This document shows positions 21,635 through 46,861 of a DNA stretch of 46,921 bases, in pieces. Every line of letters starts with the position of its first letter. The stretch's first letter is position 1. Below the pieces are notes generated by a model that was not told the DNA's origin, did no database searches, and worked only from the letters and a program-made list of their open reading frames with translations. Origin of the DNA: Amycolatopsis thermalba (lineage in GTDB: Bacteria > Actinomycetota > Actinomycetes > Mycobacteriales > Pseudonocardiaceae); NCBI RefSeq assembly GCF_003385215.1, contig NZ_PQHW01000050.1, positions 1 to 46,921 of the forward strand, read 5' to 3'. The position numbers and the translations under genes were made by a program.

Positions 21635-21664
21635 GGTGACTCCTGGTGCTCGGGCGAGGTGGTG

Positions 21665-21681
21665 AAGCGGCGAAGCCGCTT
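21665..21681. repeat. Short hairpin just upstream of the benC::benD start
   Basis: AAGCGGC (21665-21671) and GCCGCTT (21675-21681) form a perfect 7-bp stem with a 3-nt loop, about 30 bp before the start codon of the fusion gene. It may affect translation or message stability. Confidence 0.5.
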
Positions 21682-21714
21682 GTGGTGGGCCGTGAACCGG
21701 CACCGCCGCGGGTT

Positions 21715-21842: not shown

Positions 21843-22349
21843 CTAGATGTGGTAGACGTCGACGACGTGGTGGATGTAGTCGTTCTTGAGGATCACCGTC
21901 TTGCGGCGGATCAGCGGGGATTCGCCGGAGAAGTCGATCGTGTAGAACGACGTGCCGTAGTACGGGTCGACCGTCTTGTAGCGGAAGTACATGGTGTGCC
22001 AGTTGAAGCGCACGTCCACGATGTCGCCGCGGCGCTCGATCAGCTCGACGTTGGTGATGTTGTGGCTGGTGCGCGGCTCCGGGATCGACGTGGCGCTGGA
22101 CCGCTCGGTGCGGATCCGGAACACCCGGTCCTCCAGCCCGCCCTTGTTCGGGTAGTAGATGAGCGAGATCTGGCTCCGCGGGTCCTCGGTCAGCAGGTCG
22201 TCGTCGCCCCAGGAGGGCATCCAGAACACGACGTCGTCGGCGTAGCAGTCCAGCCACTTCTCGAACTCGCGGTCGTCGAGGTAGCGCGCCTCGCGGTAGA
22301 GGAACTGCTCGATGTCGGTCTGGGTGATGGTCTTGATCCCGGTGGTCAT
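21843..22349 (-). CDS. benB: Benzoate 1,2-dioxygenase small (beta) subunit
   Basis: A 168-residue ring-hydroxylating dioxygenase beta subunit (SnoaL-like fold). Family segments visible are [33 protein letters not shown], and [20 protein letters not shown]. It has no cofactor and serves in the alpha3beta3 assembly with BenA. ATG 22349 overlaps the benA stop (ATGA), so the two subunits are translationally coupled. Length is as expected. Confidence 0.95.
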
Positions 22350-23695
22350 TCCGCCGCTCCGATCGCCTTGCGCAGGGTGTCCCGCCAGTAGCCGTGCTGG
22401 ACCGGGTACAGCCCCTCGTCCTCGTTCTTCTGCCCCGCCGAGATGACGCCCTTCATGTCCAGGGCCAGCGCGACCTCGTCCGGGCCGGTCAGCCAGTGCT
22501 CGGCGCCGCGGCTCATGTCGTTCCACGGCGCGGCGGTGGCGCGGAAGGTGAGCTGGCAGGAGCGGAACTCCTCCAGGTCGTCCGGGGTGGCCATGCCGGA
22601 GGCGTTGAAGAAGTCCTCGTACTGCCGGATCCGCCAGGCGCGCGCGTCGGCGCTCTCGCCCTTGGGCGCGATGCAGTAGATCGTCACCTCGGTCTTGTCC
22701 GGCGCGATCGGCCGGAAGTGCCGGATCTGCGTGGAGAACTGGTCCATCAGGTAGACGTTGGGGTACAGGCACAGGTTGCGGGAGCCCTTGACCATGAACT
22801 CGCCCTTGGCGTCGCCGAACTCCGCCTTCAGCTCGTCCATCCGGTTCCACAGTGGACGGTCCTGCGGGTTGGCCGCCCACGTCCACAGGCACAGGTGCCC
22901 GTGCGGGAAGGACCAGTAGCCGCCGCCGGACTTGCCCCAGCTGCCGGCGTCGAGGGTCTTGGTGTCGTTCGTGGACTCACCGGTGTTGCGCCGCGCGGTG
23001 GTGGCCGCGTAGTTCCAGTGCGTCGCGGTGACGTGGTAGCCGTCGGCGCCGTTTTCGGCCTGCACCTTCCAGTTGCCGTCGAAGGTGTAGGTGGACGAGC
23101 CGCGCAGCACCTCCAGCCCCTCCGGGGACTGGTCCACCAGCATGTCGATGATCTTCGTGGTGTCCCCGAGGTGCTCTTCCAGAGGCAGCACGTCGGCGTT
23201 GAGGCTGCCGAACAGGAACCCGCGGTAGCTGTCGAAGCGGGCCACGCGGGTCAGGTCGTGCGAGCCGCCGGTGTTGAACGAGGCCGGGTACCCGGCGCCG
23301 TCGGGGTCCTTGACCTTGAGCAGCTTGCCGTCGTTGCGGAAGGTCCAGCCGTGAAAGGGGCAGGTCAGGGTCATCCGGTTGTCGGTCTTGCGGCGGCAGA
23401 TCATCGCGCCCCGGTGCGCGCAGGCGTTGATCAGGCAGTGCAGCTCGCCGCCGGAGTCGCGCGTGATCACCACCGGCTGCCGTCCGATGTAGGTGGTGAA
23501 GCAGTCGCCCGGGTTCGGGATCTGGCTCTCGTGGGCGAGGTAGATCCAGTTGCCCTCGAAGATGTGCTTCATCTCGAGTTCGAAGATCTCCTCGTCGGTG
23601 AAGATCCGGCGGTTCGCGCGGTAGATCCCGGCCTCGCGGTCCTCCACGACGGCGTCGGCGAGGACGGCCGACACGTGGTCCACGGTCTCGGTCAT
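22346..23695 (-). CDS. benA: Benzoate 1,2-dioxygenase large (alpha) subunit
   Basis: A 449-residue Rieske dioxygenase alpha subunit. The Rieske ligands are in [11 protein letters not shown] (C-x-H) and CPFHGWTF (C-x2-H). The mononuclear iron site is indicated by [18 protein letters not shown] (His residues after N and D). It adds both atoms of O2 to benzoate, using electrons from the BenC part of the fusion protein, and gives the 1,2-cis-dihydrodiol. ATG 23695 follows GGAGG by 5 nt; an in-frame GTG at 23773 would read through the promoter and is rejected. It is the first gene of the minus-strand ben operon. Confidence 0.96.
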
Positions 23696-23783
23696 GGAAA
23701 CCTCCAACGGCCTCAGCGGCACTGCTCGGCTCTGCGTGTTCCCCCGACCATGACAACCCGTGGCCCCAGTCACACCGGGCGAT

Positions 23784-26824: not shown

Positions 26825-27106
26825 ATGTTGTTCCACGTCCGGATGGATGTTCGGTTGCCGTCCGATATGGACCCGTCGGTGCGGGCGGACATCGTCGCCC
26901 GGGAGAAGGCGTACAGCCAGCAGCTGCAACGGGAGGGGAAGTGGCCGCACCTGTGGCGCATCGTGGGTGAGTACTCGAACATCTCGATCTTCGACGTGGG
27001 GTCGAACGACGAACTGCACGAGCTGTTGTCGGGGTTGCCGTTGTTCCCGTACATGGATATTCGGGTGATGCCGTTGGCTACGCATCCTTCCAAGGTGGTG
27101 GAGTAG
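26825..27106 (+). CDS. catC: Muconolactone delta-isomerase
   Basis: A 93-residue muconolactone isomerase, MLFHVRMDVRLPSDMDP onward, with the family segments GKWPHLWRIVGEYSN and LPLFPYMDIRVMPLATHPS. It turns muconolactone into 3-oxoadipate enol-lactone. A ribosome site (TGGAGG) precedes the ATG. It is the last gene of the lysR-catB-catA-catC unit; the next steps (enol-lactone hydrolase, CoA transferase, thiolase) are not in this window. Confidence 0.95.
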   Translation: MLFHVRMDVRLPSDMDPSVRADIVAREKAYSQQLQREGKWPHLWRIVGEYSNISIFDVGSNDELHELLSGLPLFPYMDIRVMPLATHPSKVVE

Positions 27107-34346: not shown

Positions 34347-35912
34347 TCAGCCGATGCGCCTGCCCTGCCCGGCCCAGTACGGAGCACGCAGCGACTTCTT
34401 GTCCACCTTTCCCGACGCGTTCAGGGGCAACGCGGACACGAAGTCCACCGACTTGGGCGCCCACACACTGCCCTTGTGCTCCTTGACCAGCGCGATCAGC
34501 TCCCCGGCAGCCACGTCGGACCCCGGTTTCGGCACGACGACCGCCTTGACCGCCTCGCCCCACTTCGGGTCGGGCACGCCGAACACCGCGCACTGCGCGA
34601 CCGCGGGGTGCTGGGCCAGCACGTCCTCCACCTGCCTCGGGAACACGTTGAACCCGCCCGACACGATCATGTCCTTCTTGCGGTCGACGAGGTAGAGGTA
34701 GCCGTCGTCGTCGAGGTAGCCGATGTCGCCGGAGTGCACCCAGCCGTCGCGGATCGCCTCGCCGTCCAGCGCGGGATCGAGGTAGCCGACCATCTGCCCC
34801 TCCTGCCGGGTGCAGACCTCCCCCACGTCGCCGACCGGCAGGATCCGGTCGGACTCGTCCTGGATGCTCATCTCGACGTGGAACATCGGCCGCCCGGCGG
34901 ACGCCAGCCGCGCGACCTCCTCCGGCGTGCCGAACCGGTGGTCCTCCTTGCGCAGCGTCGTCATGAAGCCGGGCTCGTGGCCGGCGTAGGTCTGCACGAA
35001 GATCGGCCCGAGCGCGGCCAGCGCCTGGCGCAGGCGTTCGGGCGCGATCGGCGAACCGGCGTAGACGACCGTGCGCAGCGACGAGAGGTCCGTGTCCGCC
35101 AAGCGCGGGTGGTCGAGCAGCAGGTACAGCGCGGTCGGCACCACCGCGGTCGCGGTGACCCGCTCCTTCGCCACGGTGTCGAGCAGCAGGTCGATGTCCA
35201 GGGTGGGCAGCATGACGTTCGTCCCGCCGCGCATGAACGTCGGCAGCACGAACGCGCCCGTGAAGTGCGTGAGCGGCGCGCCGTGGGCGAACACCTCGCC
35301 GGGGCGGGTGTCGGCGATCTCCAGGCCCGCCGTCACGATGTAGTGCGACCAGGCCTCGTGGGTGTAGATGACGCCCTTGGGCGTGCCCGTCGTGCCCGAG
35401 GTGAAGGCGACGTAGGCGAGGTCGCCCGGCGCGGGCTCGGGGACCGGCGTCTCCGTCGGCGCCGCGCTGAACACCATCCCGTAGTCCCAGGTGTCCGCCA
35501 GGTCCTCCCCGCCGCCCAGCCGGATGTACCGCCGGATGCCCGGCAGCCGGCCGCGGAACTTCCCGACGACCGGCTCGAACTGGGAGTGGTAGACCAGCGT
35601 CGAAGCTTCGGACTGCTCGAGGAAGAACGCGAGGTCCTCGGCGGAGGCCCGGGCCGGCATCTGCACCGTCGCCGCACCGGCCTTCCAGATCCCGTGCTGC
35701 GTCGGGATGAACTCCAGGCAGTTCGGCATCAGCAGCCCGACCCGGTCCCCTTTCCGCACGCCGAGCTCGTGCAGGCCGTTGCCGACGCGGTCGGACCACT
35801 CCCGCAGCTCCCGGTACCGGATCCGGCGGTCGCCGTCCACGATGGCCACCCGGTCCGGGTAGTACGCGCAGGCGCGGTCCAGGACGCTGGGCAGCGTTCC
35901 CCACAACGACAT
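34347..35912 (-). CDS. AMP-dependent acyl-CoA synthetase/ligase
   Basis: A 521-residue ANL-superfamily ligase. The adenylate-forming P-loop is FTSGTTGTPKGV. QTYAGHEPGFMTTL holds the A5 region; YLYLVDRKKDMIVSGGFNV is the A8 hinge; and NASGKVDKK carries the catalytic Lys. It activates a carboxylic acid as the acyl-AMP and then the CoA thioester; fatty, cyclic or aromatic acids are all possible. ATG 35912 overlaps the stop of the nitronate-monooxygenase-like gene by one base. The pair is divergent from the ABC importer and may act on its imported substrate. Confidence 0.92.
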   Translation of the reverse strand: MSLWGTLPSVLDRACAYYPDRVAIVDGDRRIRYRELREWSDRVGNGLHELGVRKGDRVGLLMPNCLEFIPTQHGIWKAGAATVQMPARASAEDLAFFLEQSEASTLVYHSQFEPVVGKFRGRLPGIRRYIRLGGGEDLADTWDYGMVFSAAPTETPVPEPAPGDLAYVAFTSGTTGTPKGVIYTHEAWSHYIVTAGLEIADTRPGEVFAHGAPLTHFTGAFVLPTFMRGGTNVMLPTLDIDLLLDTVAKERVTATAVVPTALYLLLDHPRLADTDLSSLRTVVYAGSPIAPERLRQALAALGPIFVQTYAGHEPGFMTTLRKEDHRFGTPEEVARLASAGRPMFHVEMSIQDESDRILPVGDVGEVCTRQEGQMVGYLDPALDGEAIRDGWVHSGDIGYLDDDGYLYLVDRKKDMIVSGGFNVFPRQVEDVLAQHPAVAQCAVFGVPDPKWGEAVKAVVVPKPGSDVAAGELIALVKEHKGSVWAPKSVDFVSALPLNASGKVDKKSLRAPYWAGQGRRIG

Positions 35913-36856
35913 CAGAACTCCTTTCCGGCCGCGCAGGCCTCGGGCAGGGGATCGACGGGAACGGCCCGGAGGGCCGAGGCGTATTCCGCCCGGGTCGTCT
36001 CGACCAGATCGGCGACGCTCTGCACGCGGTGCACGCCGTGCGCGCTCTGGCCGGCCGCCCAGGCCCGCGGTCGCTCGAGCAGCGTCCGGAAGTCGAACCG
36101 GGCGGGCTGGTCCGGGCCGTGGCCGGCGGTGGCGAGCGAGGCGGCGAGGAAGTTGGCGGGCAACCCGCTCGGCCCGCGGGAGAGCACGATGTCGTCGAGC
36201 GAGGCCTCGACGAGCGCCCGCCGGTAGTCGTCACCGGCGAGGCTCTCCTCGGTGGCGATGAACCTGGTGCCCATGTACGCCAGGTCCGCGCCCAGCAGGC
36301 GGGCGGCGAGCAGCGCGACACCGTCGCTGACGCCGCCGGCGAGGACCACGGGCCCGTCGTAGCGCTCCCGCACCGCGCGGACGAAGGCGAACGGGTTGTT
36401 CCACCCCGTCTGCCCACCGGCTCCGGAGGTCAGCAGCACCAGACCGTCGGCGCCGGCCGCCAGGGCCCGGTCCACGTGGCGCAGGGTCGCGACGTCGGCG
36501 AACACGAGCGCCCCGGCGTCGTGCAGCGGCCCGATCACCGGCTCCGGGGATCCGACGCTGGTGATCACCACCTCGGCGCCGTGCCGCACGAGACAGTCCA
36601 CGTCCTCCCGCAGCCGGGGGTTCGACCGGTGCACGACCAGGTTGGGCGCGACCGGGGCAGCCGCGGCGGGCAGGGCCTCCCGGATGTGGGTCAGCCACCG
36701 GCCGAGCTGGGCGGGAGTCCGCGCGTTGTGCGTCGGGAACGAGCCGACGACGCCCTGGCGGCACGCGGCGACGACGAGATCGGGACCCGAAACGGCCGTC
36801 ATGGGCGCCGCGATCAACGGCAACCGCAGCCGCGCGGCCCAGGAAGAAGGAAGCAT
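35912..36856 (-). CDS. Nitronate monooxygenase-family flavoprotein
   Basis: A 314-residue TIM-barrel FMN enzyme of the NMO/2-nitropropane dioxygenase family: LPLIAAPMTAVSGPDLVVAA at the N-terminus, TSGAGGQTGW in the FMN phosphate region, VVLAGGVSDGVALLAARLL and AYMGTRFIATEES. True NMOs oxidise nitronates; many homologues are quinone reductases or act on other substrates, so the reaction is open. I chose ATG 36856 with GGAG 9 nt upstream; an in-frame start at 36889 is less likely. It is translationally coupled to the CoA ligase. Confidence 0.85.
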   Translation of the reverse strand: MLPSSWAARLRLPLIAAPMTAVSGPDLVVAACRQGVVGSFPTHNARTPAQLGRWLTHIREALPAAAAPVAPNLVVHRSNPRLREDVDCLVRHGAEVVITSVGSPEPVIGPLHDAGALVFADVATLRHVDRALAAGADGLVLLTSGAGGQTGWNNPFAFVRAVRERYDGPVVLAGGVSDGVALLAARLLGADLAYMGTRFIATEESLAGDDYRRALVEASLDDIVLSRGPSGLPANFLAASLATAGHGPDQPARFDFRTLLERPRAWAAGQSAHGVHRVQSVADLVETTRAEYASALRAVPVDPLPEACAAGKEF

Positions 36857-36971
36857 GCGGTTTTTCTCCGAGCGAGGACTGATCGGCACGAAAAGAAAAG
36901 GGAAGAATCGGCAAAAGGAAATCAGCGCGACGGCGAATACGTCACACCGCTCCCGGTCGCGTTCGTGTGTC

Positions 36972-37328: not shown

Positions 37329-38327
37329 ATGAGCGCAGTTCTACCGAGGTCCCGACCGTCATTCGCGAACCGGATTTCCCAGGAGCAAGTGGTCCTGTTC
37401 GTGGTCGTGGCCCTGTTCGTGGTCTTCAGCCTGACCCTCGACGGGTTCCTCAACGTCGACAACCTGGTCAACCTGGTCCGCAGTGTGTCCGCACTGGGGA
37501 TCTTCGGGGTGGCCATGGCGGTCGTGGTGATCGCCAGGGGGATGGACCTGTCCCTCATCGCCTCGATGGGCGTGGCCACCGCGGTGGCGATCCAGCTGAT
37601 GCGCACACCGGTCAGCACCCCGGTCGCCCTGCTGACCGGCCTCGGCATCGTCGTCATCATGGGGCTGCTGAACGGGTTCCTGATCGCCTTCGTGGAGATC
37701 CCGGCCCTGTTCGCGACGCTGGCCTCCGGCCTGCTGGTCTACGGTCTCGCCCGCACCACCGTCCTGGACGGACTGATCGCGGAGCTGCCCGGCGACCGCC
37801 AGTTCGTCCTCGCCCTGGGACAGGGCACCGTCTTCGGCATCCCGGTCCCCATCATCGTGTTCGCGGTCGTCGCCGTGCTCGCCCAGCTGATGCTCTCCCG
37901 CACCCGCGGGGGACGCTTCATCTACGCCCACGGGGACAACGCCGGCGCGGCCGCGCTCACCGGCATCGCCGTGCGGCCGCTGACCGTGTTCGAGTACACG
38001 GCCAGCGCCGCGACCGCGCTCGTCGGCGGCCTGGTCACCGCCGGCGCGGTCGGCGGGCTCAACACCCAGGTCATCGACGGTTCGCTGATCTACGACGTGC
38101 TGCTCGTCGTCGTGGTCGGCGGCATCAGCCTGGTCGGCGGACGCGGCAGCGTCGCGAGCGTGGTGGCCGGCACCGCGCTGATCGGGATCATGCTCAACGG
38201 CATGACGATCATGAACATGAACACCCACGAGCAGGACATCGTCAAGGGTCTCATCCTGCTCGCGGCCCTCGTGCTGGACAACCGGCTGCACCCGCGCGAC
38301 GAAGAGACCGTCCGCCAGGGCGACTGA
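37329..38327 (+). CDS. ABC importer permease (RbsC-like)
   Basis: A 332-residue BPD_transp_2-family permease with about ten hydrophobic segments. Family marks are VVVIARGMDLSLIASMGVA (the substrate/ligand-channel segment) and GDNAGAAALTGIAVRPL (cytoplasmic loop contacting the ATPase). It is the first of two permeases in the operon. GGAGTAG precedes ATG 37329. RbsC-type importers carry sugars, but related systems carry other polar or even steroid-like compounds, so the substrate is open. Confidence 0.92.
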   Translation: MSAVLPRSRPSFANRISQEQVVLFVVVALFVVFSLTLDGFLNVDNLVNLVRSVSALGIFGVAMAVVVIARGMDLSLIASMGVATAVAIQLMRTPVSTPVALLTGLGIVVIMGLLNGFLIAFVEIPALFATLASGLLVYGLARTTVLDGLIAELPGDRQFVLALGQGTVFGIPVPIIVFAVVAVLAQLMLSRTRGGRFIYAHGDNAGAAALTGIAVRPLTVFEYTASAATALVGGLVTAGAVGGLNTQVIDGSLIYDVLLVVVVGGISLVGGRGSVASVVAGTALIGIMLNGMTIMNMNTHEQDIVKGLILLAALVLDNRLHPRDEETVRQGD

Positions 38328-38365: not shown

Positions 38366-39442
38366 ATGCGTCCACTTCGTACCCGCGCGGTCCGCGCGCT
38401 CGCACTCGGCGCCGCCGCGGTGCTGATCGCCACCGGATGTTCCACCGGCACCAGGGCGAACTCGACGTCGGCGGGCAGCGGCCAGATCCCGCCGACCGCC
38501 TCCGCCGGTGAACTGCGCAACCACGCCCTGCGCAGCATCGAGGGCAAGACGGTCGCGTTCGTCCCGGTGGGACTGGGCACCCCGCTCATGGAGGAGTGGA
38601 ACCGCCAGATGGAGACCGGCTTCAAGGCGGCCGGGCTGAACTACGTCCTGCGCGATCCCAACTGGGACACCGCGAAACAGGCCGAAGCGGTGCAGTCGCT
38701 GATCAACGAGAAACCCGCCGTCCTGGTGGTGCACAACTTCGACGTGCAGATCCTCGCCAAGCTCATCCAGCAGGCCGAGCAGGCCGGGATCTACGTCATC
38801 CAGATCAACATGGTGAGCAACTACAAGTCGGACGCCTTCGTCGGCGCCGACACCATCGACCTGGGCCGTCGCATCGCGACCGACATCGTCAACGAGTGCG
38901 GCGCGAACACCCCCACCTCGCACGAGGTGCAGATCGTGCAGGGCGACGCGACCTCCGGCTTCACGCTCGACGTGATGGCGGGCGCGAAGGAGATCTTCGA
39001 CCAGCACCCGGAGATCAAGATCGTGTCCACCCAGGCGGCGAACTGGGACCGCACCAAGGCGCACGACATCACGGCGACCGTGATCCAGCAGCACCCGAAC
39101 CTGTGCGCCAGCTGGGGTTTCTGGGACCAGATGCAGTACGGCTCGGCCGCGGCGATCAAGGAGGCCGGCAAGCTCGGGCAGGTCAAGGTGTTCACCTCCG
39201 ACCACAGCTCCATCACCTGCGAGGGCATCCGCGACGGCATGTTCCACCAGTCCTACGGCTACTCGGTGCCCACCCAGGGCAAGGACATCGTCGCCATCGC
39301 CAAGTACCTCCTGCAGTCCGGGCAGGCGCCCGGCACCGCACGCATCGCCGACTACACCCCGCTGGTGAAGATCGACAAGACCAACTGGAACCAGCCCAAC
39401 ATGTGTTACGACGGCAAGAGCGACGGGCTCACCGTTTCCTGA
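38366..39442 (+). CDS. ABC importer substrate-binding lipoprotein
   Basis: A 358-residue type I periplasmic-binding protein (RbsB-like). The signal peptide ends in a lipobox (VLIATGC), so it is anchored to the outer face of the membrane at Cys25. The binding fold shows KTVAFVPVGLGTPLMEEW, an INEKPAVLVVHN segment, and FVGADTIDLGRRIATDI. AAGGAGGT precedes the ATG. It delivers the unknown substrate to the two permeases encoded on either side. Confidence 0.92.
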   Translation: MRPLRTRAVRALALGAAAVLIATGCSTGTRANSTSAGSGQIPPTASAGELRNHALRSIEGKTVAFVPVGLGTPLMEEWNRQMETGFKAAGLNYVLRDPNWDTAKQAEAVQSLINEKPAVLVVHNFDVQILAKLIQQAEQAGIYVIQINMVSNYKSDAFVGADTIDLGRRIATDIVNECGANTPTSHEVQIVQGDATSGFTLDVMAGAKEIFDQHPEIKIVSTQAANWDRTKAHDITATVIQQHPNLCASWGFWDQMQYGSAAAIKEAGKLGQVKVFTSDHSSITCEGIRDGMFHQSYGYSVPTQGKDIVAIAKYLLQSGQAPGTARIADYTPLVKIDKTNWNQPNMCYDGKSDGLTVS

Positions 39443-39463: not shown

Positions 39464-41665
39464 ATGACGGCAAGTACGGAAGTCCGGCCCGTGCCCGCCC
39501 GGCGCCGGCCTCCGGAGCGCAACGTTCTGGAGAACGAGAACCTCGGCACCCGGCTGCGCCACCTGCGGTACCGGTTCTCCCCGCAGCAGTTGTTCGCCGA
39601 GCTGTTCGAGAAGCGGTGGATGGAACCCGCCATCCCGCTGGCGATCCTGGTCGGGGTGATCGTCTTCTTCTCGATCGCCGCACCGGGTTTCGCCACCACC
39701 GCGAACCTGTTGTCCTCGGCCACCGAGCTCGCCGAGATCTCGCTGGTCTGCCTCGGCATGGCGGTCGTGATGATCTCCGGCGGGATCGACCTGTCCGTCG
39801 GCTCGATGTTCGGGCTGTGCAACATCGTGGTGCTCCTGCTGATCACCGTCGTCGGTGTGCCCGTCGTGCCGGCGATCCTGCTGACGATCGTCGTCGGCGC
39901 GGTCCTCGGGTCGGTGAACGGGTCGATCGTGGCCTACCTCAAGGCGCGGCCGTTCCTCACCACACTCGTCACGCTGATCATCTTCCGCGGCGTCCTCAAC
40001 CTGCTGGACCTGCACTACTCCGCGCAGACCGCGACGGTGTTCCTGATGGACCCGGTGTGGGACTGGTTCAGCACGGGCAAGGTGGCCGGCATCCCGTTCA
40101 GCTTCGTCACGCTGCTCGTCGTGCTCGTCGCGGGGCACATCCTGCTCAGCCGGTCGCGGTTCGGCTGGCACGTGACCGCCGTCGGCGCGAGCAGGCGGGC
40201 CGCGCGGCACGCCGGTATCCGGGTGGAACGGGTGCTGCTGCTGGGTTACGTGATCTCCGGCGCCCTGTGCGCGCTGGCCGGCGTCTTCTACGCCGCGCGC
40301 CTGGGCAGCGCGAGCGCCCGCGTCGGCGAGGGCATGGAACTGAGCGTGCTGACCGCGGTGATCCTCGGCGGCATCAGCCTCTCCGGCGGCAAGGGCACGG
40401 TGTGGCGGGCGTTCATCGGCGCGGCCACGATCAGCCTGCTCGGCAAGGGTCTGCTGCTGATGGACGTCGGCGGCGAGGTGCTGCAGACGGCGCTGGCCGT
40501 CGTGCTGATCATCGCCGTCGGTCTGGATACGAAGTGGGGCAAGAACCGCGGCAAGGCGATCCAGAAGACCTACGTCAACCCCACGCTCGTCGAGTACGGC
40601 ACCCCGCCGGACGTGCGGCCCGGCTCGGGCACCCGGTACGAGATCAACGACCGTCTCAGCGACGCCGAGGAGATCGGTCTCGGTGAGGTCGAAGGGCCGG
40701 AGGACGTCATCCTCGACGACCAGGGCCGGATCTACTGCGGCACCCGGCAGGGCTGGATCCTGCGGTTCTCCGGCGAGGACTACCGCGACCGGGAGATCTT
40801 CGCGCGCATCGGCGGCCACCCGCTGGGGCTGGCCTTCGACTCCGCGGGCGACCTGATCGTCTGCGTCGGCGGCATGGGCCTGTACGCGGTCTCGCCCGAC
40901 GGCAAGCACCGCAAGCTGTCCGACGAGACGAACCGGACCTGGACCCGCCTGCGGGACGACTCGCGGCTGCGCCTGCCCGACGACCTCGACATCGCGCCGG
41001 ACGGCAAGATCTACTTCAGCGAGGCCACCAACCGGTTCGAGATGGCCGACTGGGTCCTCGACGGCATCGAGGGGCGGCCCAACGGGCGTCTGTTGTGCTA
41101 CGACCCGGCCACCGGCAGGACCCGCACCGCGGTGCCGGACCTGGTGTTCCCCAACGGGGTGTGCTGCTCCCACGACGGCGAGTCGGTGCTGATCGCCCAA
41201 ACCTGGCTGTGCCGCATCCTGCGGTACTGGCACAGCGGCCCGAAGAAGGGCCGGCTCGAGGTGTTCATGGACAACTTCCCCGGCTACGTGGACAACATCA
41301 ACCGCGGCTCCGGCGGGGCCTACTGGGTCGCGATCTGCGGCATGCGCTCCCCCGCCTACGACCTCGCGATGCGGATGCCGAAGTTCCGCCGCCGCATGAT
41401 GAAGCGCATCCCGCGCGACGAATGGCTCTACCCCAGCATGAACCACGGCTGCGTGGTGCGGGTGTCCGAGCGGGGCGAGGTGCTCGACACCTACTGGGAC
41501 CCGGGCGGGAAGAAGCACTCCACCATCACGTCGATGCGCGAGCACGACGGCTACCTGTACATCGGCGGGCTGGAGAACAACCGCATCGGCCGGATCAAGG
41601 TGCGTGAGGTCCCCGCCGCGGCCGCCGGCGAGGCACGCCGGACGCGCCACGCGTCGGTGAGCTGA
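39464..41665 (+). CDS. ABC permease fused to an SMP-30/strictosidine-synthase-like beta-propeller
   Basis: A 733-residue two-part protein. Residues 1-355 are a second RbsC-like permease (MISGGIDLSVGSMFGLCNIV, GASRRAARHAGIRVERV, AVILGGISLSGGKGTVWRAF). Residues about 390-720 form an SMP-30/gluconolactonase/strictosidine-synthase-type propeller (GLGEVEGPEDVILDDQGRIY, LPDDLDIAPDGKIYFSEATN, NGRLLCYDPATGRT). The join at TKWGKNRGKAIQKTYVNP is continuous, with no frameshift. By RbsC topology the propeller should face the cytoplasm, where it could hydrolyse a lactone or ester as the substrate enters. That role is inference. Confidence 0.92.
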   Translation: MTASTEVRPVPARRRPPERNVLENENLGTRLRHLRYRFSPQQLFAELFEKRWMEPAIPLAILVGVIVFFSIAAPGFATTANLLSSATELAEISLVCLGMAVVMISGGIDLSVGSMFGLCNIVVLLLITVVGVPVVPAILLTIVVGAVLGSVNGSIVAYLKARPFLTTLVTLIIFRGVLNLLDLHYSAQTATVFLMDPVWDWFSTGKVAGIPFSFVTLLVVLVAGHILLSRSRFGWHVTAVGASRRAARHAGIRVERVLLLGYVISGALCALAGVFYAARLGSASARVGEGMELSVLTAVILGGISLSGGKGTVWRAFIGAATISLLGKGLLLMDVGGEVLQTALAVVLIIAVGLDTKWGKNRGKAIQKTYVNPTLVEYGTPPDVRPGSGTRYEINDRLSDAEEIGLGEVEGPEDVILDDQGRIYCGTRQGWILRFSGEDYRDREIFARIGGHPLGLAFDSAGDLIVCVGGMGLYAVSPDGKHRKLSDETNRTWTRLRDDSRLRLPDDLDIAPDGKIYFSEATNRFEMADWVLDGIEGRPNGRLLCYDPATGRTRTAVPDLVFPNGVCCSHDGESVLIAQTWLCRILRYWHSGPKKGRLEVFMDNFPGYVDNINRGSGGAYWVAICGMRSPAYDLAMRMPKFRRRMMKRIPRDEWLYPSMNHGCVVRVSERGEVLDTYWDPGGKKHSTITSMREHDGYLYIGGLENNRIGRIKVREVPAAAAGEARRTRHASVS

Positions 41666-41674
41666 GGAGGAACC

Positions 41675-42796
41675 ATGCCACGAGTGGAAGCGTGGGAACT
41701 GGTCAAGGAGTTCCTGTTCCCCGGCCGGTCCGGCGCGCGGGCGATCCCGCCGCTGGACGGCGGGCTGACCCCGAACGACGCGCTGGAGCGCATCGAGGAG
41801 TCGATCGACGAGCTGCCCGAGCCCGACGACGTGGTGCGCGACGCGTACGGATCGCTCCACGTCACCACGGCCGACAAGGTGGTCCGGCGGTACGGCCTGA
41901 ACTTCGCCCACCACGAGGTCACCGCGACCGTGCCCGGTGACGCCGGCGCGATCGCACTCGACCACGAGGGCGGGCTGCTGGTGTGCGTGGCGGGTCTCGG
42001 GCTCGTCCGCGTCGACCAGGGCGGCGGCACCGAGGTCCTCGTCGACGCCGACTCCGACGGCGTGCCCACTCGCTGCCTGACCGATGTCGCGGTGGCCGGC
42101 GACGGGACGATCTACCTCACCGACGGCTCCGTGCGCCACCACGGCGCGGACTGGGTGCGCGACCTGATGGAGCAGAACGCCCTCGGCCGGCTCCTGCGGT
42201 ACGACCCGCGGACCCGCCGGACCACGGTGCTGGCCCGCGGACTCGCCCACCCCAGCGGGGTCACGCTCACCGCGGACGAGGACGCACTCGTCGTCAGCGA
42301 GGCGTGGTCGCACCGGCTGGTGCGGTACCCGCTGGCGGACACGAGCCGCCCGGACGTGCTGCGGGACAACCTGCCCGGCTACCCGGGGCGGATCAGCCCG
42401 GCCTCCGGCGGCGGGTACTGGCTCGCGGTGTTCGCGTTGCGCACCCAGCTGGTCGAGTTCGTCCTCACCCAGCGCGACTACGTCGAGGAGATGATGCGCA
42501 CGATCGAACCGGACCTGTGGATCCGCCCCGCGCTGCGCGGCCTCGACTCGGGGCTGGAACCCCTGCAGGGCGGTCAGATCCGCAAGCTCGGCGTGATCAA
42601 ACCGTGGGCGCCGCCCCGGTCCTACGGCCTGGTGACCCGGCTGGATCCCGACGGGTACCCGCTCCGCAGCCTGCACAGCCGCGGCGGCGGTCGGCGGCAC
42701 GGGGTGACGTCGGTGAAGCAGTACGGCGACCGGTTGTTCATCGCGGTCCGCGGTGGCGACGAGGTCCTGATCACGAGGGCGGGTGACGCGCAATGA
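41675..42796 (+). CDS. Stand-alone SMP-30/strictosidine-synthase-like beta-propeller protein
   Basis: A 373-residue propeller homologous to the C-terminal half of the preceding fusion. Shared landmarks include DVAVAGDGTIYLTDGSVRHH, GRLLRYDPRTRRTTVLA, and the LPGYPGRISPASGGGYWLAV segment, which matches FPGYVDNINRGSGGAYWVAI there. No signal peptide is seen, so it is probably cytoplasmic. AGGAGGAA precedes ATG 41675, 9 bp after the fusion stop. Homologues are lactonases, esterases or strictosidine synthases; this one may pair with the fused domain. Its stop overlaps the ATPase start (ATGA). Confidence 0.88.
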   Translation: MPRVEAWELVKEFLFPGRSGARAIPPLDGGLTPNDALERIEESIDELPEPDDVVRDAYGSLHVTTADKVVRRYGLNFAHHEVTATVPGDAGAIALDHEGGLLVCVAGLGLVRVDQGGGTEVLVDADSDGVPTRCLTDVAVAGDGTIYLTDGSVRHHGADWVRDLMEQNALGRLLRYDPRTRRTTVLARGLAHPSGVTLTADEDALVVSEAWSHRLVRYPLADTSRPDVLRDNLPGYPGRISPASGGGYWLAVFALRTQLVEFVLTQRDYVEEMMRTIEPDLWIRPALRGLDSGLEPLQGGQIRKLGVIKPWAPPRSYGLVTRLDPDGYPLRSLHSRGGGRRHGVTSVKQYGDRLFIAVRGGDEVLITRAGDAQ

Positions 42797-44340
42797 GCCA
42801 GTCGCTGGTGGACCAGCTCGACATCGACCCGGCAGGCGGCGGCACGCTGCTGGTGGACATGGCGAAGGTGACCAAGACCTACCGCGGGGTGCACGCCATC
42901 TCCGAGGTCGACTTCGACCTGCGGGCCGGCGAGGTGCACGCGCTGGTCGGCGAGAACGGCGCGGGCAAGTCGACGCTGTGCAAGATCCTCGCCGGGGCGG
43001 TGCAGCATTCGAGCGGAGTGGTGCGCATCGGCGGGGAGGAGGTCTCGTTCCGGCGCCCGCACGAAGCGCTCGACCACGGCATCGCGATGGTCTACCAGGA
43101 GACGAGCCTGGTGCCGACGATGACGGCGGCGCAGAACATCGAGCTCGGCCACGAAAAGCTGCTGACCCGGTTCCGCTCGCTGAACATCGGCGCCCAGCAG
43201 CTGCTGCAGTCGATGAACTTCCACGTCGACCCGACGGCGTACGTGTCCAACCTCGGCGCGGCGAAGAAGCAGATGGTCGAGATCGCGCGGGCCCTGCGCA
43301 CCGGCGCGCGCATCGTCATCTTCGACGAGCCGACCGCGAGCCTCACGCCTGAGGAGACCCTGCACCTGTTCAACGTGATCGAGGACCTGCGGACCGCGGG
43401 CCTGGGCATCATCTACGTGTCCCACGCGCTGGAGGAATCGCTCGCCATCGCCAACCGCGTCACCGTTCTGCGTGACGGCAAGCGGGTCGCCTGCCTGGAC
43501 GCGAAGCAGACCTCGCGGGACGAGATCGTCAAGTACATGGTGGGCCGGTCGCTGGACGGGGCCGCGCGGAACCGCCCGGCCGCCCGCGAGGGCCACGTCC
43601 GGCGCCGCCGGGTGCTGGAGGTCGAGAACCTGATCCTGGGCAACGTCGTGAAGAACATGTCGTTCTCGGCCTACGCCGGTGAGGTGCTCGGCATCGCCGG
43701 GCTGATCGGCAGCGGCCGGACGGAGACGGCGAAGATCATCACCGGCGCGCTGAAACGCAACCGGATCCACGGCGGGCGGGTGCTGCTCAACGGCAAACCG
43801 GTCCGCTACCGGGTGCCCAAGCAGGCCATCGACGACGGCATCGTCTACATCACCGAGGACCGCAAGCTCGACGGGTTCTTCGAGACGATGACCGTGGCCG
43901 ACAACATCTACCTCGGGTACCTCGCCTCCCGCCGGGGCCGCCGGCAGTGGCTGCTGGCCGGATCGCAGCGCAGGCGCGTCGCCGACGAGTGGTCGGCGAA
44001 GCTGCGCATCAAGGCGATCAACGCGGACGCGAAGATCATCGAGCTGTCCGGCGGGAACCAGCAGAAGGTGGTGGTCGGCAAGTCGCTGGTCGCCGAGCCG
44101 GAGGTGGTCATCTTCGACGAGCCCACGCGCGGCGTCGACGTCGGCGCGATCGACGAGATCCACCACCTGATCCGCACCCTCGCCGACGAGGGCAAGGCGG
44201 TGATCGTCATATCCTCCTACCTGCCGGAGATCCTCGCCGTGTCGGACCGCATCCTGGTCACCAGGTTCGGCCGCGCGGTTGCGGAGTTCAGCCGCGCGGA
44301 GGCGACGCAGGAGAAGATCATGTACGCCGCGATCTACTGA
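42793..44340 (+). CDS. ABC importer ATPase with two nucleotide-binding domains (RbsA-like)
   Basis: A 515-residue double ATPase. The first domain has an intact Walker A (GENGAGKSTLCKIL) and Walker B (IVIFDEPTASL), but its signature reads LGAAKKQMVEIARAL, without the usual LSxGxxQ. The second domain has the degenerate P-loop GLIGSGRTE and an intact signature LSGGNQQKV. This gives one good composite ATP site, as in other RbsA/MglA proteins, though the loss in the first signature seems stronger than usual. ATG 42793 overlaps the previous stop. It powers the permeases encoded upstream. Confidence 0.93.
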   Translation: MSQSLVDQLDIDPAGGGTLLVDMAKVTKTYRGVHAISEVDFDLRAGEVHALVGENGAGKSTLCKILAGAVQHSSGVVRIGGEEVSFRRPHEALDHGIAMVYQETSLVPTMTAAQNIELGHEKLLTRFRSLNIGAQQLLQSMNFHVDPTAYVSNLGAAKKQMVEIARALRTGARIVIFDEPTASLTPEETLHLFNVIEDLRTAGLGIIYVSHALEESLAIANRVTVLRDGKRVACLDAKQTSRDEIVKYMVGRSLDGAARNRPAAREGHVRRRRVLEVENLILGNVVKNMSFSAYAGEVLGIAGLIGSGRTETAKIITGALKRNRIHGGRVLLNGKPVRYRVPKQAIDDGIVYITEDRKLDGFFETMTVADNIYLGYLASRRGRRQWLLAGSQRRRVADEWSAKLRIKAINADAKIIELSGGNQQKVVVGKSLVAEPEVVIFDEPTRGVDVGAIDEIHHLIRTLADEGKAVIVISSYLPEILAVSDRILVTRFGRAVAEFSRAEATQEKIMYAAIY

Positions 44341-44394: not shown

Positions 44395-45063
44395 GTGAAA
44401 GCAGCAGCGAGGAAGACCCGCCCCGCGCGGGGCGGGCGGGACGACTGGCGCAATTTCGAGCCGCTCGACCTGACCCCCCTGCTGGCCGCGGCGCTGCAGG
44501 CGTTCTACGAGCGCGGGTTCTACGGCACCTCGGTGCGGGACATCGCCCGCCGGGTCGGCCAGACGGTGCCGTCGCTGTACTACCACCACGAGAACAAGGA
44601 GGGCGTGTTCGTCGCGCTGCTGGAGAAGGGCACGCTCGAGGTGGCGTGGCGGGCCCGCGCGGCGGTGGAGGACGCCGGTGACCGGCCCGACCTGCAGTTC
44701 GTGAACATGATCGAGGCGGTCGTGCTGTACATGACGCACCGCGTCAAGCTGGCCACCCTGGACGTCGAACTGCGCTACCTGTCGGCCCCGAACCGCAGGC
44801 GCTACGCGGCGATCCGCAAGGAGGTGGAGGACCTGCTGGTCCGCGTCGTCACCGACGGTGCGGTCCAGGGGATCTTCACGGTGGCCCAGCCCGCCGAGAC
44901 GGCCCGCGCCCTGCTCGGCATGTGCCAGTCCATAGCCCGCTGGTACCACCCGACCGGCCCGATGGCGCCCGAGGAGGTCGCCCAGCGCTACATCGACATC
45001 GCCCTGATGACGGTGGGAATCCACGAGCGCCCGAAACACCTCGAGGGTGTCCCCGACCGGTGA
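44395..45063 (+). CDS. TetR-family regulator at the end of the ABC operon
   Basis: A 222-residue TetR regulator. The HTH lies at about 28-75: LLAAALQAFYERGFYGTSVR, DIARRVGQTVPSLYYHHENK. The ligand-binding domain has a long helical stretch with HRVKLATLDVELRYLSAP. The start GTG 44395 follows GGTGGA; the gap to the ATPase gene is 54 bp. It is the likely repressor of the importer and of the divergent NMO/CoA-ligase genes through the sites at 36972 and 37284 (inference). It is convergent with another TetR gene 56 bp away. Confidence 0.9.
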   Translation: MKAAARKTRPARGGRDDWRNFEPLDLTPLLAAALQAFYERGFYGTSVRDIARRVGQTVPSLYYHHENKEGVFVALLEKGTLEVAWRARAAVEDAGDRPDLQFVNMIEAVVLYMTHRVKLATLDVELRYLSAPNRRRYAAIRKEVEDLLVRVVTDGAVQGIFTVAQPAETARALLGMCQSIARWYHPTGPMAPEEVAQRYIDIALMTVGIHERPKHLEGVPDR

Positions 45064-46387: not shown

Positions 46388-46797
46388 CTAGGGCGTGTCC
46401 TCAAAGTCGGTGTGCTCTTGGGTGGTGCGTAGGCGCGAGCTGGCTGATGTGCAGTGGCGGGTGATCGAGCCATTGCTGCCGGCGTCGGGGGCGAAGGGAC
46501 GTCCGCGGGTTGATGACCCCCCGGGTGATCAATGGGGATGTTGTTCAAGGCCAAGACCCGGGTGGCGTAGCGTGACCCACCACCAAGATCCACCTCGCCT
46601 GCGACGGTCACGGACGGCTCTTGTCGATCGTGTTGACCGGCGGCAACGTCCACGACTGCACCATGTTCACGCAGGTCATGGCAGGCACCGAGTTCCGCAG
46701 GCCAGGCCCCGGCCGTCCGCCGACCCGGCCGAGCAGGTTCTGGCGACAAGGGCCACTCCAGCCACGCCACACACGCCGCAACATCGTCCAACGATGA
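46388..46797 (+). mobile_element. Internally deleted IS5-like transposase remnant
   Basis: The N-terminal end of an IS5-family transposase is readable from about 46395 (RRRELADVQWRVIEPLLPAS, GAKGRPRVDD). A jump in frame and content follows, then TKIHLACDGHGRLLSIVLTG and GNVHDCTMFTQVMAGTE from 46582 to a stop at 46795. The region between, including part of the DDE domain, is missing. GGGCGTGTCCTCAAAGT near 46391 may be the left terminal repeat; I could not find a matching right end. It cannot transpose by itself. Confidence 0.75.
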
Positions 46798-46861
46798 GCT
46801 TGGCCCTGTGGCCCGGACACCTGACCTGAGGTGACCGTCGGTTACCGGGGAGGATGTTGCG

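What the first reader, a model, noticed from the sequence alone, without database searches (positions are those of the whole stretch)
39464..42796. ABC permease fused to a lactonase-like beta-propeller, followed by a second propeller
A membrane permease carrying a soluble SMP-30/strictosidine-synthase-like domain at its C-terminus, with a free-standing paralogue next door, suggests transport coupled to hydrolysis at the inner face of the membrane. The operon adds a second permease, binding lipoprotein, double ATPase and TetR gene, and a CoA ligase plus NMO-like enzyme are divergent. A coherent reading is capture of a lactone or ester, ring opening on entry, then CoA activation. I know of no described system with this layout.
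Basis: partly seen in the sequence, partly recalled or inferred. Interest (0 to 1): 0.75.

Follow-up and report, generated by a model that had tools for sequence, protein, structure and literature searches.

The report
Importer permease fused to lactonase-like propeller
A bacterial uptake pump carries, fused to one of its membrane subunits, a domain that looks like a metal-dependent ring-opening enzyme, and beside it lies a second copy that has lost the metal site; the same gene set recurs in distant bacteria, which suggests that some nutrients are split open as they enter the cell.

Summary
ORF 39464-41665 is one 733-aa protein: a CUT2/ribose-type ABC permease, then a strictosidine-synthase-like (SSL) propeller. 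A free SSL paralogue follows at 41675-42796. In 36 of 36 loci compared (Actinomycetota; Alpha-, Beta-, Gammaproteobacteria) binding protein, fused permease, free propeller and double ATPase keep order and spacing; the upstream permease is present in 34, the other two reaching a contig end.

The two propellers differ in kind. The fused one keeps the metal ligands of SMP-30-type hydrolases in 36 of 36 loci; the free one in 0 of 36. The fused domain is probably a cytosolic lactonase/esterase, the free one a pseudoenzyme.

Neighbours vary. CoA-type enzymes lie near in 20 of 21 actinobacterial but 4 of 15 plasmid loci. In 6 of 36, in two phyla, the operon adjoins an ACAD11/LvaC-like dehydrogenase, kinase and CoA ligase, the 4-hydroxyacyl-CoA route; 4-hydroxy acids are opened gamma-lactones. 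The window's locus lacks this. Import-coupled lactone hydrolysis is my best reading; substrate and activity are unproven. No structure model could be run. Five paper searches for the fusion found no description.

The parts
37329..38327 (+). Permease A, BPD_transp_2 (CUT2 type), unfused, 332 aa
   Evidence: Pfam 68.9 bits; best NCBIfam similarity AraH/RbsC-type permeases, below equivalog cut-off; present upstream in 34 of 36 loci
38366..39442 (+). Substrate-binding protein, Peripla_BP_4, with an N-terminal hydrophobic stretch ending in ..ATGC (lipobox-like, by eye)
   Evidence: Pfam 160 bits; N-terminus printed; aromatic residue (W/F/Y) in 36 of 36 at the place aligned with an Asn of the allose-binding protein
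39464..41665 (+). Fused protein: CUT2 permease B (residues 82-351) plus SSL propeller (about 392-712)
39707..40516 (+). Permease domain of the fusion (Pfam BPD_transp_2, residues 82-351)
   Evidence: Pfam 129 bits
40637..41599 (+). SSL/N6P propeller domain of the fusion; ligand positions E413 (40700), D506 (40979), N564 (41153), D610 (41291)
   Evidence: E-[D/N]-N-D in 244 of 247 homologues and D-N-D with a gap at the first position in 3; 36 of 36 loci; same columns as E-N-N-D of four SMP-30/gluconolactonase-family proteins of the same genome
41675..42796 (+). Free-standing SSL propeller, putative pseudoenzyme (ligand columns read D, T, S, G; the N611 column is Arg)
   Evidence: a hydrophobic segment in the first 60 residues occurs in 0 of 120 homologues
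42793..44340 (+). Double ATPase of CUT2 type
   Evidence: Pfam ABC_tran, 2 stretches; Walker A GENGAGKST in 36 of 36, LSGGNQQ in 35 of 36, the other (L031) being cut off before that motif
44395..45063 (+). TetR regulator; same-strand place downstream of the ATPase in the window and four close orthologous loci (L067, L070, L071, L073), with a 22% hit at that place in L074
   Evidence: Pfam TetR_N / TetR_C_24
34347..35912 (-). Divergent acyl-CoA ligase
   Evidence: Pfam AMP-binding 271 bits; kept in three close orthologous loci L067, L070, L073
35912..36889 (-). Divergent NMO/FabK-like flavoenzyme
   Evidence: Pfam NMO 91.7 bits; kept in L067, L070, L073

Best explanation
A five-gene ABC importer of the CUT2 architecture in which one permease carries, on its cytosolic C-terminus, a metal-dependent N6P-type hydrolase propeller. 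SHOWN by sequence: the architecture, its conservation across two phyla, an intact metal-ligand set in the fused propeller, loss of that set in the free propeller, and one clade for each propeller in the tree. INFERRED: the binding protein captures a small, probably not sugar-like, lactone or ester; the importer passes it inward; the tethered propeller hydrolyses it at the channel exit to a hydroxy acid, which traps it; the free propeller binds the fused propeller or the product as a non-catalytic partner or regulator; the hydroxy acid is then oxidised, often after CoA activation, by enzymes that differ from locus to locus. In one subset the opened product is most likely a 4-hydroxy acid (so a gamma-lactone is imported).
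For: Operon order in 36 of 36 loci. Fused E-[D/N]-N-D-N in 36 of 36 and free in 0 of 36; 247 and 131 homologues agree. Same columns hold E-N-N-D in four of four SMP-30-family proteins of this genome and in 12 of 13 other SSL proteins, with ESND in the other; one of the four aligns with human regucalcin at its ligand Asn positions (ligand numbers recalled). PDB relatives of the fused profile are a rice SSL-type protein (8kg3, 7e-35) and strictosidine synthases, and weakly DFPase (2e-4) and Drp35 (0.0015). A review states that most SSL-group proteins keep four metal ligands and are more likely hydrolases (PMC4215206, passages). Fused and free propellers each form one clade (100/99 and 100/98). 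Cytosolic side by charge. ATP-site motifs intact. APH kinase + CoA ligase + ACAD adjoin the operon in 6 of 36 loci in two phyla; the two of these ACADs that were tested score highest with ACAD11 among named characterised structures, and LvaA/LvaC and ACAD10/11 process 4-hydroxyacyl-CoAs (PMC11342911 and PMC12440821, passages).
Against: No assay, no structure model (24 busy answers), no growth or fitness data. Hydrolase activity is inferred from ligands alone. One ligand is Asp in 125 of 247 fused proteins, window included, where relatives have Asn. 30 of 36 loci show no kinase/ACAD11-like module in the stretch examined, window included (only 5.8 kb to the right is available there); the six with it represent about two independent associations, and ACADs matching at E<=1e-30 are numerous (13-32 per genome in ten genomes), so some co-location could be chance. 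CoA-type neighbours were found in only 4 of 15 plasmid loci, the queries came from the same loci, and no background control was run. Sugar- or polyol-type genes lie within the fetched stretches of several plasmid loci (L032, L033, L037, L086). Topology rests on charge and hydropathy only.
Confidence: 0.47

Rival explanations
1. The fused propeller is a sensor, not an enzyme: it binds substrate or product on the cytosolic side and gates the permease or ATPase (trans-inhibition, by recalled analogy with regulatory domains on other ABC importers), and the free propeller is a second, metal-free receptor.
For: The free propeller is conserved although it lost the metal site, so a non-catalytic role exists in this operon; fusion to a permease is a plausible place for regulation; the metal could be structural.
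Against: The ligand set plus neighbouring acidic residues (D507, D509) is unchanged in 247 of 247, apart from D/N at 506 and a gap at E413 in 3, as in hydrolases; the other SSL proteins keep the ligands too.
Confidence: 0.22
2. An ordinary sugar-type importer whose lactonase domain opens an aldonolactone or similar sugar lactone; nothing beyond a sugar-acid uptake system.
For: CUT2 architecture throughout; propeller of the gluconolactonase superfamily; sugar- or polyol-type genes within the fetched stretches of L032, L033, L037 and L086, in Pantoea (L033) with a D-arabinono-1,4-lactone oxidase about 8 kb downstream of the fused gene.
Against: The residue aligned with an Asn of the allose-binding protein is W, F or Y in 36 of 36 binding proteins (its role as a sugar contact is recalled); CoA-type enzymes lie near in 24 of 36 loci, 20 of 21 actinobacterial and 4 of 15 plasmid. 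Sugar kinases were not counted systematically.
Confidence: 0.23
3. The SSL domains do a non-hydrolytic reaction or only help complex assembly.
For: Plant strictosidine synthases of this fold are metal-independent condensation enzymes (PMC4215206, passages); the free propeller resembles them in having lost the ligands.
Against: The fused domain keeps the ligands that the review says strictosidine synthases lack.
Confidence: 0.07
4. Annotation or assembly artefact.
For: None found.
Against: 117 of 120 listed relatives carry both domains; 15 of 15 plasmid records with a match over at least 80% of the query keep the architecture.
Confidence: 0.01

Closest known systems
CUT2 (ribose/allose/arabinose-type) ABC importers, Pfam BPD_transp_2 + Peripla_BP_4 + double ABC_tran
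   Same: Two permeases of the RbsC/AraH kind, a Peripla_BP_4 binding protein, one double ATPase with the consensus ATP-site motifs
   Different: One permease carries a propeller; a second propeller gene lies in the operon; the binding protein differs at one aligned pocket position; the first signature motif reads LGAA.. in 26 of 36 and LG[IV][AG].. in 7 instead of LSxGxxQ (the usual motif is recalled); the subunits tested score below NCBIfam equivalog cut-offs
SMP-30/gluconolactonase, Drp35 and DFPase (N6P metal hydrolases)
   Same: Pfam SGL over cut-off and the four metal-ligand columns in the fused domain
   Different: Fused to a membrane permease; belongs to the SSL subgroup (SSL_N, Str_synth); one ligand is Asp or Asn
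Strictosidine synthase and SSL proteins (APMAP named from recall)
   Same: SSL_N and Str_synth domains; best PDB match is rice protein 8kg3, then strictosidine synthases
   Different: The fused domain keeps the ligands that strictosidine synthase lost; the free domain lost them in its own way (Arg in the N611 column in 119 of 131)
LvaA/LvaC levulinate route and mammalian ACAD10/11
   Same: In 6 of 36 loci an APH kinase, CoA ligase and ACAD adjoin the importer; two of these ACADs were tested and are ACAD11-like
   Different: No fused importer is mentioned in the passages read; module not found at the window's locus or in 29 others, within the stretches examined

Membership tests
CUT2 ABC importer | BPD_transp_2 permeases, Peripla_BP_4 binding protein and a double ATPase encoded together | tested here: met
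   Pfam on the window; same genes by tblastn in the other loci
CUT2 ABC importer | Consensus nucleotide site (Walker A of half 1, LSGGQ-like signature of half 2) | tested here: met
   36 of 36 and 35 of 36 by pattern; the missing one is cut off before the motif
CUT2 ABC importer | Sugar-type binding pocket in the binding protein | tested here: inconclusive
   One pocket Asn aligns with W/F/Y in 36 of 36, but pocket residue roles are recalled and no structure was modelled
N6P metal hydrolase (fused propeller) | Four metal ligands | tested here: met
   E-[D/N]-N-D in 36 of 36 loci, 244 of 247 homologues complete, 3 with a gap at the first; one ligand may be Asp
N6P metal hydrolase (fused propeller) | Six-bladed propeller fold | tested here: inconclusive
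   By sequence profile only; structure prediction unavailable
N6P metal hydrolase (fused propeller) | Hydrolysis of lactone, ester or phosphotriester | not testable with these tools
   Needs assay
N6P metal hydrolase (free propeller) | Four metal ligands | tested here: not met
   0 of 36, 0 of 131
Strictosidine synthase (fused propeller) | Loss of the metal ligands, metal-independent condensation | tested here: not met
   Ligands present; the condensation itself not testable
LvaA/LvaC (ACAD10/11) 4-hydroxyacid pathway, subset of loci | ACAD of the ACAD11/LvaC group next to an APH kinase and a CoA ligase | tested here: met
   L028: ACAD11 425 bits against 139 for the next group; L077: 248 against 172; APH and ligase by Pfam; 6 of 36 loci by tblastn. 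ACAD type was tested in 2 of the 6; the other four ACADs are 78-90% identical to that of L077
LvaA/LvaC pathway, window locus | Same module near the window's operon | tested here: not met
   Of the neighbour families queried only the CoA ligase is found within 11 kb; the right flank available is 5.8 kb

The most novel reading that the evidence does not exclude
A family of importers that couple transport to hydrolysis: the permease carries its own lactonase at the cytosolic mouth and is accompanied by an ancient pseudoenzyme propeller that regulates it or forms a mixed pair with it. The cassette is a movable front end that feeds different oxidation pathways, in one branch a gamma-lactone to 4-hydroxyacyl-CoA route, and so supplies a candidate uptake step for lactones.
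Probability: 0.32. Interest if true: 0.82.

Novelty: new variant of a known kind. Interest (0 to 1): 0.63.

Why it matters
If true, it is an ABC importer with a catalytic domain built into its permease. That would make 'hydrolysis on entry' (trapping of a neutral, leaky lactone as its charged acid) directly testable, and would give a candidate transporter for lactone or ester feedstocks. An enzyme/pseudoenzyme propeller pair found in every operon examined here is also a clean system for asking what pseudoenzymes do. Database labels currently split the same protein between 'ABC transporter permease' and 'SMP-30/gluconolactonase family'.

Tried and rejected
Assembly error or frameshift: rejected. 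Both propellers as hydrolases: rejected for the free one. One common substrate for all loci: not supported; neighbours vary. Mevalonolactone, from the degradative HMG-CoA reductase gene overlapping permease A in Shinella HZN7: a single locus, and one search found nothing to the point (listing only); kept only as a lead. The single genome-contig scan used one sequence rather than an alignment and returned only 10 loci, mostly close relatives. Promoter and terminator scan: no promoter-like site, one terminator-like site on the other strand, fewer than in shuffles. A first extraction of other SSL proteins read the wrong strand for minus-strand loci and was redone; the tree run stopped on a naming error and was rerun, again without one SMP-30 row (SGL_L002) that I had set aside. 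Those 13 other SSL proteins were not checked for further domains. From the two searches 4 of 240 listed fused relatives of 600 residues or fewer were dropped before the count. Structure models: never run; the queue was full 24 times, so fold and pocket geometry are untested. My flank gene caller is crude and picks some wrong frames; conclusions rest on Pfam, NCBIfam, record annotation or tblastn matches. On rechecking the neighbour counts CoA-type neighbours proved less general than I had first written; I lowered the main reading from 0.50 to 0.47, the novel case from 0.33 to 0.32 and interest from 0.64 to 0.63, and raised the sugar-lactone rival from 0.20 to 0.23.
Full report
WHAT IS THERE. 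The window holds an operon-like run: permease A (37329-38327), binding protein (38366-39442), fused permease B (39464-41665), free propeller (41675-42796), double ATPase (42793-44340) and TetR gene (44395-45063), with a divergent CoA ligase (34347-35912) and NMO-like gene (35912-36889). Gaps between the genes from permease A to the ATPase are 38, 21, 9 and -4 bases; TetR follows after 54. The fused protein is one open frame with BPD_transp_2 (residues 82-351), SSL_N (392-435), Str_synth (506-592) and SGL (453-626) matches, all over Pfam cut-offs.

IS THE FUSION REAL AND HOW WIDE IS IT. A search with the propeller region scored 8000 candidates and found 3368 at E<=0.001; not all of these need be fusions, but 117 of the 120 listed carry the permease Pfam domain as well (the other three, P0006, P0012 and P0092, are shorter proteins). 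A search with the whole Pantoea fused protein, which favours fusions, listed 120 of 120 with both. Among plasmid records, 15 had one place covering at least 80% of the query, and I fetched all 15. In Actinomycetota it is patchy: 1 of 346 genomes from the phylum, the window's own, and 14 of 297 from the family, at E<=1e-100.

OPERON CONSERVATION. In 36 of 36 the binding protein, fused protein, free propeller and ATPase lie on one strand in the same order with near-identical spacing; permease A lies upstream in 34, and the other two (L071, L072) reach the contig end there. In L031 the ATPase is cut by the end of the stretch. Loci come from Actinomycetota and Alpha-, Beta- and Gammaproteobacteria. 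They are not all independent: four copies (L067, L070, L071, L073) have propellers 95-97% identical to the window's.

TWO PROPELLERS, TWO KINDS. In an alignment of 247 fused and 131 free sequences (the window, ten plasmids, 236 and 120 listed hits), the columns of E413, D506, N564, D610 and N611 read EDNDN in 122 fused sequences, ENNDN in 122, and gap-DNDN in 3. Of the 131 free sequences none has E-[D/N]-N-D; the D610 column is G, A, S, H or T in all 131, and the N611 column is R in 119. In pairs taken from the same operon the result is 36 of 36 against 0 of 36. These columns are the metal-ligand columns: four of four SMP-30/gluconolactonase-family proteins of the same genome read E-N-N-D there, and of 13 other SSL proteins 12 read ENND and one ESND. 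One of those SMP-30 relatives aligns along its length with human regucalcin, its Asn residues falling on the regucalcin Asn residues that I recall as N103 and N154. A review (PMC4215206, passages only) says that four such ligands bind the metal needed for hydrolysis, that strictosidine synthases are the outliers, and that most SSL-group members keep them and are more likely hydrolases. A tree of 58 sequences puts the fused and the free propellers in one clade each (support 100/99 and 100/98), with the other SSLs apart; the SMP-30 rows have long branches, so the root is unsure. In ten plasmid operons the free propellers are on average 44% identical to one another and the fused ones 59%.

WHERE IT SITS. 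By hydropathy and charge, the N-terminus (11 K/R, 7 D/E), the loop 229-256 (7 K/R, 1 D/E) and the stretch after the last predicted membrane segment (LDTKWGKNRGKAIQK in the window) are positive, which places the propeller in the cytosol; no later hydrophobic segment occurs in 236 of 236 relatives. The test is crude: it calls eight segments, two of them overlapping. Of 120 free relatives, none has a hydrophobic segment in its first 60 residues; 16 have one somewhere else. The ATPase keeps Walker A GENGAGKST in 36 of 36 and LSGGNQQ in 35 of 36, the other being cut off before it, so the transporter looks active.

WHAT IT MIGHT CARRY. The binding protein is nearest allose- and ribose-type sugar-binding proteins, but the residue aligned with an Asn of the allose-binding protein is W, F or Y in 36 of 36 (29, 4, 3; its role as a sugar contact is recalled). 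Neighbours differ between loci. With neighbour proteins taken from these same loci as queries, a CoA-type enzyme (ligase, acyl-CoA dehydrogenase, enoyl-CoA hydratase, MaoC, thiolase, CoA transferase or HMG-CoA reductase) lies within 11 kb in 24 of 36 loci: 20 of 21 actinobacterial and 4 of 15 plasmid. An alcohol, aldehyde or short-chain dehydrogenase lies there in 25 of 36 (18 and 7). Celeribacter L030 has none of the families queried. No background control was run. Sugar- or polyol-type genes occur within the fetched stretches of L032, L033, L037 and L086.

A TELLING SUBSET. An APH kinase, a CoA ligase and an ACAD adjoin the operon in 6 of 36 loci: upstream in Sulfitobacter (L028) and directly downstream of the ATPase in L076, L077, L078, L079 and L043. 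Pfam confirms the three for L028 and L077 and the kinase and ligase for L076. Against solved structures the L028 ACAD scores 425 bits with ACAD11 and 139 with the next group; the L077 ACAD scores 248 with ACAD11 and 172 with the next group; an unnamed putative ACAD, 4hr3, scores alongside (424) and above (283). The L077 kinase also matches the ACAD11 kinase domain (52 bits), below other APH-type proteins. In P. putida LvaA and LvaC, and in mammals ACAD10/11, phosphorylate 4-hydroxyacyl-CoA and eliminate phosphate; the authors made their 4-hydroxy acids by opening gamma-lactones (PMC11342911 and PMC12440821, passages). A lactonase on the importer would supply exactly such acids. Against this: 30 of 36 loci show no such module in the stretch examined, the window among them (5.8 kb available on its right side); the six amount to about two independent associations; and ACADs matching at E<=1e-30 number 13 to 32 per genome in the ten genomes searched, although in the four module-bearing genomes among them the copy in the operon is the best match.

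MECHANISM. My best reading is import-coupled hydrolysis: capture, ATP-driven import, ring opening by the tethered metal hydrolase, trapping as the acid, then oxidation, often through CoA esters. The free propeller would be a pseudoenzyme partner. Steps shown: architecture, conservation, ligand retention and loss. Steps inferred: cytosolic placement, hydrolysis, substrate class, partnership. A ligand-sensing regulatory domain, or a plain sugar-lactone importer, cannot be excluded.

WHAT IS KNOWN. Of ten paper searches, five looked for this fusion or operon and gave no description of it; the library holds only openly licensed PMC papers. Of the ten listings those five returned (0, 4, 3, 3 and 0, one paper appearing twice), I opened passages of two papers, which mention separate genes; the others I saw in the search listing only. 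The other five searches concerned SSL lactonases, APMAP, mevalonate, levulinate and ACAD11. By family it is a CUT2 importer plus an N6P propeller, a new variant of a known kind rather than a new kind.

Noticed in passing
window 19466-21703 (-): One frame joins a ring-hydroxylating-dioxygenase-type reductase (Fer2, FAD_binding_6, NAD_binding_1) to a short-chain dehydrogenase, like a fusion of the benzoate genes benC and benD (gene names recalled); a Rieske alpha subunit (22346-23773) and a muconolactone isomerase (26825-27106) lie close by.
   Followed up: partly
window 38366-39442 and the binding proteins of the other loci: Four cysteines of the binding protein (C178, C247, C285, C347) are conserved in at least 90% of the 36 rows, possibly two disulfides.
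   Followed up: no
window 42793-44340 and the ATPases of the other loci: The first signature motif reads LGAA.. in 26 of 36 ATPases and LG[IV][AG].. in 7 (pattern not found in 3), unlike the usual LSxGxxQ, which is recalled; may mark this branch.
   Followed up: partly
L034 10634-12975 (Shinella HZN7): A degradative HMG-CoA reductase gene overlaps the start of permease A by one base: mevalonate or mevalonolactone as a possible substrate there.
   Followed up: partly
L069, L075, L080, L082, L084 and L085: A second recurring neighbour, an acyl-CoA dehydrogenase (44% identical between L075 and Paracoccaceae L085), occurs in two phyla; MmgE/PrpD genes lie near in L082, L083, L084 and L085, and MaoC in L069, L075, L080 and L082.
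   Followed up: partly
L028 8889-9896: A protein with DUF7064/DUF7065 matches (weak, below-cut-off match to the Rv3169 family) lies between the ACAD and permease A in Sulfitobacter.
   Followed up: no
window 46395-46829 (+): Frame that looks by eye like part of an IS5-type transposase near the contig end; not tested.
   Followed up: no
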